A stretch of DNA of 33,488 bases from Promicromonospora citrea (lineage in GTDB: Bacteria; Actinomycetota; Actinomycetes; Actinomycetales; Cellulomonadaceae), in assembly GCF_013004695.1 (NCBI RefSeq), contig NZ_JABEMG010000043.1, positions 1 to 33,488 of the forward strand, given 5' to 3'. Under the pieces are notes generated by a model. The model had not been told where the DNA came from, searched no databases, and saw only the letters and a list, made by a program, of their open reading frames with translations. Position numbers and translations under genes: made by a program. This document shows, piece after piece, positions 6,856 through 7,349 of this stretch (position 1 is its first letter; each line of letters begins with the position of its first letter).

Positions 6856-6957
6856 GAGGCCAGTGTCACCCGTCCCCCGCGGGCCCGCGACTGTCGCCCG
6901 GGGCCACTATCACGGCGCCGCTCATTTCGCGCTTTAACAATCAATATCCCCTTCACG

Positions 6958-6986
6958 TTGCACTGTCCGGCTCGCCTACTTAACGT
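6958..6986 (+). promoter_or_regulatory. Promoter of the 27-residue peptide gene
   Basis: TTGCAC (6958-6963) and TAACGT (6981-6986) are 17 bases apart, in a stretch (about 6920-7045) clearly richer in A and T than its surroundings. The predicted 5' leader of about 65 bases contains two small hairpins: CGAAC/GTTCG (6995-6999 and 7003-7007) and TCACGG/CCGTGA (7010-7015 and 7024-7029). Confidence 0.5.
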
Positions 6987-7057
6987 ATAGAACGCGAACA
7001 CCGTTCGACTCACGGGCAAACGTCCGTGATCCCCAATTAACAAGAAGGAGCTCGCAC

Positions 7058-7141
7058 ATGAGCCTCATCGACATCGTCGCCAACCTGGTCTGCAACCTGG
7101 GTCTCACCGTCGCCCAGGTGCTGTGCCTGCTGGGTCTCTGA
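7058..7141 (+). CDS. 27-residue hydrophobic, amphipathic peptide (unknown)
   Basis: A short ORF begins MSLIDIVANLVC, continues NLGLTVAQV and ends LCLLGL, then TGA. A near-ideal ribosome site, AAGAAGGAG (7042-7050), lies seven bases before the ATG, the best in the window. Almost every residue is hydrophobic. The polar ones (Asp5, Asn9, Asn13, Thr17, Gln20) fall every 3-4 positions, so they line one face of a helix. Cys12 and Cys23, three turns apart, face the same way. The gene has its own promoter and a 15-bp-stem terminator, so it is a free-standing unit. Options are a membrane microprotein, a type I toxin-like peptide, a secreted amphipathic or antimicrobial peptide, or the ORF of a dual-function small RNA. 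I recognise no family. Reality as a translated gene is well supported; function is not. Confidence 0.72.
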   Translation: MSLIDIVANLVCNLGLTVAQVLCLLGL

Positions 7142-7160
7142 CCTGGTAGGACACCCAGGT
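7141..7160 (+). other. Hairpin at the stop codon of the peptide gene
   Basis: ACCTGG (7141-7146) pairs with CCAGGT (7155-7160). The right arm can instead pair with coding-region ACCTGGGT (7095-7102) through ACCCAGGT (7153-7160), an 8-bp exclusive alternative. Confidence 0.4.
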
Positions 7161-7185
7161 CTGCGGGAGTCGATCCCCCAGCAGG

Positions 7186-7219
7186 AGAGCTCCCCCACGG
7201 TCGCCCGTGGGGGAGCTCT
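7186..7219 (+). terminator. Strong terminator of the peptide gene
   Basis: A perfect 15-bp stem (7186-7200 with 7205-7219; arms AGAGCTCCCCCACGG and its complement) closes a TCGC tetraloop and is followed by TCCC. It ends the short transcript about 45 bases after the peptide stop codon. Confidence 0.8.
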
Positions 7220-7264
7220 TCCCTGAGCGCACCTTTTTCTGCGCCGCGGTGCGCACGAGGAAGC

Positions 7265-7349
7265 CGCAATTGCGCGAGCGCATTTCTCGCGCCTCGGCTG
7301 GAAATTTCCTGGCGCCTTTTATAGATAGCCCCGGCACGCCGTGCCGGGG
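7265..7349. other. Structured intergenic segment before arfB
   Basis: Between the peptide terminator and arfB there are several dyads: CGCAATTGCG (7265-7274), GCGCGAG/CTCGCGC (7272-7278 and 7286-7292), GGAAATTTCC (7300-7309) and a 9-bp stem with a GCC loop (7329-7337 and 7341-7349). The last is preceded by TATAGA (7320-7325), a possible -10 box that would place the hairpin at the 5' end of the arfB mRNA. The opposite strand reads TATAAA at 7316-7321. No ORF with coding character is seen. Confidence 0.35.

What the first reader, a model, noticed from the sequence alone, without database searches (positions are those of the whole stretch)
6958..7219. Free-standing gene for a 27-residue amphipathic Cys-containing peptide
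The unit has a promoter, the best ribosome site in the window, an ORF whose polar residues form one helical stripe (5, 9, 13, 17, 20), two Cys on a common face, and a 15-bp terminator, all within 262 bases in an AT-richer patch. It does not belong to the neighbouring genes. This is the strongest candidate for an undescribed function: a membrane microprotein, a type I toxin-like peptide, or an exported signal or antimicrobial peptide.
Basis: partly seen in the sequence, partly recalled or inferred. Interest (0 to 1): 0.7.

Follow-up and report, generated by a model that had tools for sequence, protein, structure and literature searches.

The report
Conserved amphipathic small-peptide gene in Promicromonospora
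The finding is a real one-gene unit in soil actinobacteria that makes a 27-residue helix with one polar stripe, probably a membrane-active peptide, from an RNA whose own structure is also kept by evolution.

Summary
Window 7058-7141 (+) encodes MSLIDIVANLVCNLGLTVAQVLCLLGL behind its own promoter, a structured leader and a ribosome site, and before a 17-pair terminator-like hairpin. There are 18 copies in 12 of 13 Promicromonospora genomes searched, all ungapped at 27 residues, at three genomic positions with different neighbours; six genomes carry two. A substitution test supports coding in this frame only (z 4.4; 0 of 200 shuffles). Positions 5, 9, 13, 17 and 20 are polar in 18 of 18; the two cysteines are not conserved (2 and 8 of 18). 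Leader and terminator hairpins show compensatory changes. The same promoter and leader recur in a second genus of the family (2 of 4 genomes) ahead of a different 23-residue peptide. Nothing held up elsewhere, and no known family matched. Most likely it is a regulated, membrane-associating amphipathic helix, nearest in shape to TisB, but it fails the type I toxin marks tested. A UCCCC motif, invariant in the genus within an otherwise variable 3'UTR, leaves a dual-function RNA open. Function is inferred, not shown.

The parts
6908..6949 (+). Conserved upstream control region (TATCAC 6908-6913, GCGCTTTAA 6929-6937, AATATCC 6943-6949); binder unknown
   Evidence: Multiple alignment of the upstream stretches of the 18 loci; AATATCC also precedes the unit in two genomes of a second genus
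6958..6986 (+). Promoter: TTGCAC, 17 nt, TAACGT
   Evidence: Present with the same spacing in 18 of 18 loci; pattern with at most one mismatch found only at these 18 loci in 13 genomes; use not shown
6989..7057 (+). Leader with two hairpins (about 6995-7007 and 7010-7029); start site inferred
   Evidence: Second hairpin 99.2% paired over 19 sequences, one pair seen as AU, GC, CG and UA
7043..7050 (+). Ribosome site AGAAGGAG
   Evidence: Sequence
7058..7141 (+). ORF for the 27-residue amphipathic peptide
   Evidence: 18 loci, 0 gap columns of 84, coding score z 4.4 in this frame only
7174..7179 (+). C-rich motif UCCCCC in the 3'UTR
   Evidence: UCCCC in 18 of 18; predicted mostly unpaired; absent from the two copies of the second genus
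7184..7221 (+). Terminator-like hairpin, 17 pairs, loop 4
   Evidence: Found by script; 13 of 17 aligned pairs show changes on both sides
7222..7323 (.). Stretch past the hairpin that is still partly alike at other positions; role unknown
   Evidence: Blast between loci and alignment

Best explanation
A single-gene unit for a small membrane-associating amphipathic helix. A dedicated promoter makes an RNA of about 240-275 nt with two 5' hairpins and a strong 3' hairpin; it is translated into a 27-residue, mostly hydrophobic, neutral-to-acidic helix with one narrow polar stripe. The peptide most likely inserts into or lies on the cell's own membrane and acts there, as an oligomer or on a membrane partner; whether it is also exported is open. 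Shown by sequence analysis: gene, frame, stripe, conserved leader and hairpins, independence of the neighbours. Inferred: promoter use, RNA ends, helix, membrane binding, oligomer or partner, any phenotype. I hold the coding gene itself at about 0.95; the confidence given is for the membrane-active reading.
For: Frame conserved and coding score in this frame only. Polar positions 2, 5, 9, 13, 17, 20 in 18 of 18; 13 further positions never polar in 18. Hydrophobic moment above shuffles in the window copy and six other scored copies (0-1.65% of shuffles as high) and in the two peptides of the second genus (4.5-4.7%). GRAVY 0.96-1.87 in ten peptides scored. Three genomic positions with different neighbours, promoter pattern only at these loci. 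Nearest described shape: TisB, polar residues on a narrow strip of a membrane helix (PMC8309996, passages).
Against: No experiment. Five scored copies with R22 show no excess hydrophobic moment (15-32% of shuffles as high). The largest 19-residue hydropathy mean ranges from 0.88 to 1.96, so a membrane-spanning helix is not clear for several copies. Pooled pN/pS is only 0.64.
Confidence: 0.6

Rival explanations
1. Dual-function RNA: besides encoding the peptide, the transcript pairs with other mRNAs through C-rich unpaired motifs (UCCCC before the 3' hairpin, a C-rich stretch after the second leader hairpin) and blocks G-rich ribosome sites.
For: UCCCC in 18 of 18 in a 3'UTR that is otherwise poorly conserved (identity 0.48); mean predicted unpaired probability 0.66 against 0.37 for the whole RNA. 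UCCC(C) seeds of this kind act in RNAIII and RsaE (PMC9217828, passages); VcdRP joins a 29-residue protein and a pairing segment (PMC8672173, passages).
Against: The motif is absent from both copies of the second genus; it is predicted largely paired in two copies (0.10 and 0.24); no target was sought.
Confidence: 0.2
2. Type I toxin-like unit: the peptide is toxic to its own cell and held down by an antisense RNA.
For: Small hydrophobic peptide, structured mRNA, duplicated copies; shape like TisB (PMC8309996, passages).
Against: Best minus-strand promoter-like sites differ in place and strength between the 18 loci; four loci have one scoring 10 or more, at different places (weights set by me from recalled consensus). 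No Lys or Arg in the window peptide; R22 in 9 of 18.
Confidence: 0.1
3. Exported peptide: signal, surfactant or antimicrobial peptide released without a signal sequence.
For: Own promoter, amphipathic helix, constant control region ahead of different peptides in two genera.
Against: No conserved exporter or immunity gene beside it; a LysE-type gene stands beside only one of three positions.
Confidence: 0.15
4. Pure small RNA with a chance ORF, or an attenuator leader peptide for a downstream gene.
For: The RNA shows compensatory changes.
Against: Frame conservation. No shared downstream gene: an RF-1-domain gene at the window's position, a TetR gene in 12 loci, a DUF1269 gene in 4, the last two on the opposite strand.
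Confidence: 0.03

Closest known systems
TisB (E. coli type I toxin; 29 residues, recalled)
   Same: Short helix with a narrow polar strip, short structured mRNA (strip: PMC8309996, passages)
   Different: Not shown to be toxic; no antisense promoter at a conserved place; no LexA-type box with the recalled spacing; no sequence comparison with TisB was made
RNAIII and RsaE of Staphylococcus; VcdRP of Vibrio
   Same: UCCC(C) motif; RNAIII and VcdRP are dual-function RNAs with a small protein (PMC9217828 and PMC8672173, passages)
   Different: No pairing target sought or known; UCCCC not kept in the second genus
Phenol-soluble modulins
   Same: Short amphipathic helical peptides (PMC5052566, search listing and start of abstract)
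   Different: No sequence comparison made; export not tested
Ms1 RNA of Actinobacteria
   Same: Actinobacterial RNA gene between protein genes
   Different: Ms1 flanks are HAD hydrolase and oxidoreductase genes (PMC9130861, passages), not those found here; no Rfam match to this unit

Membership tests
Type I toxin-antitoxin | Adjacent antisense RNA antitoxin | tested here: not met
   No minus-strand promoter-like site at a common place in 18 loci; a weak test, as the weights were recalled and no RNA data exist
Type I toxin-antitoxin | Hydrophobic peptide under 60 residues with a transmembrane helix | tested here: inconclusive
   27 residues, largest 19-residue hydropathy mean 0.88-1.96 in ten peptides
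Type I toxin-antitoxin | Positively charged residues in the C-terminal part (in most members, PMC8309996) | tested here: not met
   None in the window peptide; R22 in 9 of 18
Type I toxin-antitoxin | Toxicity on expression | not testable with these tools
   Needs an experiment
LexA-controlled peptide (TisB-type control) | Dyad GAAC-N4-GTTC (consensus recalled) | tested here: not met
   Spacing 3 in 16 of 18, 5 in one, 2 in one
Dual-function RNA | Translated conserved small ORF | tested here: inconclusive
   Conserved coding frame; translation itself not testable here
Dual-function RNA | Base-pairing segment with targets | tested here: inconclusive
   UCCCC conserved and mostly unpaired in the genus, absent in the second genus; targets not sought
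Phenol-soluble modulins | Sequence relation and dedicated exporter | not tested
Attenuator leader peptide | Conserved regulated gene downstream on the same strand | tested here: not met
   Downstream genes differ between the three positions and are on the opposite strand in two
Ms1/6S-type RNA | Rfam model match and Ms1 flanking genes | tested here: not met
   No match; flanks differ

The most novel reading that the evidence does not exclude
An actinobacterial dual-function RNA, built independently of the staphylococcal and Vibrio ones: a constant promoter and leader, a UCCCC pairing segment, and an exchangeable amphipathic peptide (27 residues in Promicromonospora, a different 23-residue helix in a second genus), which ties a membrane-active peptide to post-transcriptional control.
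Probability: 0.15. Interest if true: 0.75.

Novelty: new variant of a known kind. Interest (0 to 1): 0.52.

Why it matters
If right, it adds a peptide gene family that the libraries searched here do not hold, and a natural experiment: one promoter and leader in front of two different helices. Deleting one or both copies in a harmless soil bacterium would test directly what such free-standing helices do.

Tried and rejected
Attenuator or leader peptide: no shared downstream gene. Pure small RNA: frame test. LexA box: spacing. Antisense antitoxin: no promoter at a common place. Ms1/6S. Mobile origin: no match of the window peptide in phage or plasmid records; four viral contigs share the 21-base leader pattern but score 7.7-8.3 bits with leader model R2, and the five non-Promicromonospora contigs score 7.2-11.4 bits, so I take them as chance. 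Weak leader-model hits in G104, G107, G131, G844 and G025 were read and show no such unit. Protein-profile hits outside the genus are partial; all but one lie in open frames of more than 120 aa, and the exception, L054, was read and is no such unit. A complementarity between the upstream TATCACAGGGTGA element and the leader was noticed by eye and dropped, since leader changes in two copies (L013, L015) break it. Folding the peptide was not tried (single proteins need 30 residues).

Papers: PMC8672173, PMC9217828, PMC8309996 and PMC9130861 seen as passages, PMC5521070 as abstract and outline; all others only as search listings. I found no description of this gene in paper searches, of which only 35, 41 and 81 named the genus; of the 68 papers found only 20 were listed. 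Subscription journals and preprints are not covered.

Full report
OBSERVATION. Promoter hexamers TTGCAC and TAACGT lie 17 nt apart at 6958-6986, a ribosome site AGAAGGAG at 7043-7050, ATG at 7058, stop at 7139-7141, and a 17-pair hairpin at 7184-7221. The lowest-GC 141 bases of the window start at 6921 (50.4% against 74.5%). The RNA 6990-7235 folds with z -6.7 against shuffles. Two reservations: the hairpin lacks an immediate U-run in this copy and was not listed by the simple terminator scan, and the strict sigma-70 scan found no promoter, so the promoter rests on conservation rather than on consensus strength.

HOMOLOGUES. A search of the window's own genome finds a second copy at 48% identity over all 27 residues. 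In the genus, 11 of 13 genomes matched with the single peptide at E up to 1. With the profile of 15 distinct peptides, 12 of 13 have full-length matches at E 4.4e-8 or better; the thirteenth, G012, has only a nine-residue match at E 0.34 inside a 398-aa frame, which I count as none. Together 18 loci (L016 and L018 are one locus). The genus is Promicromonospora: an exact scan for a 21-base leader pattern in named species genomes gave 17 stretches, 12 from Promicromonospora (P. thailandica, sukumoe, kroppenstedtii, iranensis, panici and two unnamed species) and 5 from other bacteria, which score only 7-11 bits with the leader model.

IT IS A CODING GENE. All 18 ORFs have 27 codons plus stop with no gap column in 84, while the leader has 13 gap columns of 78 and the 3'UTR up to the hairpin 40 of 76. 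A score that asks whether amino acid changes are milder than expected gives z 4.4 in the annotated frame (0 of 200 column shuffles as high); the other five frames give 1.6, 1.5, 0.3, -0.7 and -3.8. Pooled pN/pS is 0.64, reached or undercut by 1 of 100 column shuffles. This ratio is modest; ORF identity (0.765) is close to that of the leader (0.776), as expected if RNA and protein are both constrained.

THE PEPTIDE. Positions 2, 5, 9, 13, 17 and 20 are polar in 18 of 18; 3, 4, 6, 7, 10, 11, 14, 16, 18, 21, 24, 25 and 27 are never polar; M1, D5, L10, T17, L25 and G26 are invariant. The stripe 5-9-13-17-20 is therefore a family property. The hydrophobic moment exceeds shuffles in the window copy (0.85% as high) and the six other scored copies without R22 (0-1.65%), but not in the five scored copies with R22 (15-32%); 12 of the 18 loci were scored. 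Cysteines are incidental: C12 in 2 of 18, C23 in 8 of 18.

THE RNA. The second leader hairpin is 99.2% paired over 19 sequences of two genera (20 loci known; L015 left out of that alignment), and one of its pairs occurs as AU, GC, CG and UA. The 3' hairpin has 16-20 pairs by script in 17 of 18 loci; in L006 the script missed it because of a nine-base loop and I placed it by eye. On the 18-sequence alignment 13 of its 17 aligned pairs show changes on both sides; with the leader hairpin, 54 cells do so against 14.4 in shuffles and 3-11 when partners are slid. UCCCC before the hairpin is present in 18 of 18 and mostly predicted unpaired (mean 0.66 against 0.37 for the RNA; 0.10 and 0.24 in two copies).

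CONTEXT. There are three positions. Twelve loci have a TetR gene on the downstream side (12 of 12); a methyltransferase gene lies within the DNA held upstream in 9 of these 12. Two loci (the window and L003) lie between NUDIX and RF-1-domain genes. Four lie beside a DUF1269 gene (in L010 about 590 bp further off), three of these with a LysE-type gene on the other side. Pfam domains were called for one locus per position. Blast alignments across the unit between loci of different positions exist for 80 of 80 pairs, length 210-690 bp, median 343, so little more than the unit is shared. In G012 neither the methyltransferase gene nor the unit is at this place and the flanks stand 20 bases apart. 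The promoter pattern occurs with at most one mismatch only at these 18 loci in 13 genomes; the three other hits have 3 mismatches, and the reversed control pattern has 2 hits.

A SECOND GENUS. A promoter-and-leader model (R1; its automatic structure also pairs promoter bases, which has no meaning) searched in 150 genomes of the family hit 12 of the 13 Promicromonospora genomes and 2 genomes of another genus, E 7e-20 and 1.5e-10. Both carry, behind a GGAAGGA site, a 23-codon ORF: MYGTNLLDCIVWALREIVATIGL and MYGNSLIDYILWALREIVATIGL, followed by a hairpin. The genus has 4 genomes held, 2 with the unit; a third gave E 0.77 and was read as chance. One of the two lies next to a TetR gene, the other near a RibD_C gene. 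A refined model (R2, built with these two) gave only three weak further hits in 221 family genomes and one in 396 order genomes, all read and dismissed, and none besides the window's own genome in 394 class genomes. Searches of over 40 genomes used stricter filters that lose weak matches, so more distant copies may exist. Promoter and leader thus outlast the peptide sequence.

WHAT IT PROBABLY DOES. A neutral-to-acidic 27-residue helix with a narrow polar strip on a hydrophobic body is the shape of peptides that insert in membranes and assemble, or sit on a membrane partner (inference from established peptide families). TisB is the nearest described shape (PMC8309996, passages), but two usual marks of type I units tested here are not met: an antisense promoter at a common place and a basic C-terminus. 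The constant control region and duplicated, independently placed copies argue for a regulated function of its own. The UCCCC motif makes an RNA-level role possible, as in RNAIII and RsaE (PMC9217828, passages) and, for an RNA that also encodes a 29-residue protein, VcdRP (PMC8672173, passages); its absence from the second genus speaks against it as a core feature.

NOVELTY. NCBIfam: no match for any of 15 members. Pfam: best E 0.012, to an antitoxin helix-turn-helix family in 5 of 15 members, not credible at this level. PDB sequences: best E 2.1. Rfam: none at gathering score in the window; at relaxed threshold one sub-threshold hit touches the unit in L004 (28.7 bits against a gathering score of 45, on the 3' hairpin) and a pair of miRNA-model hits lies on the hairpin of L089. 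The peptide family appears new; the kind of thing, a free-standing small membrane peptide gene with a structured RNA, is known.

Noticed in passing
window 7222-7323; L001-L019 just after the 3' hairpin: Repeated dyads of the type TTGCG-n-CGCAA follow the hairpin in many of the 18 loci (for example twice in L010); binder or role unknown.
   Followed up: no
L002, L004-L015, L017-L019, about 90 bases before the promoter: Dyads such as TATCACAGGGTGA and TTAGCACAACGCTAA stand at the same place upstream of the promoter and may be operators.
   Followed up: no
L123 1481-1500 (G012 contig 10): In the one genus member without the unit, about 1250 bases holding the methyltransferase gene and the unit are replaced by 20 bases; a 77% identical stretch covering the methyltransferase gene lies elsewhere in that genome.
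   Followed up: partly
L014 2623-2694: A tRNA gene lies just beyond the TetR gene at the commonest position of the unit.
   Followed up: no
L019 (G005): The most divergent copy of the genus: shortened first leader hairpin and LG14-15 of the peptide changed to AL; it may be decaying.
   Followed up: no
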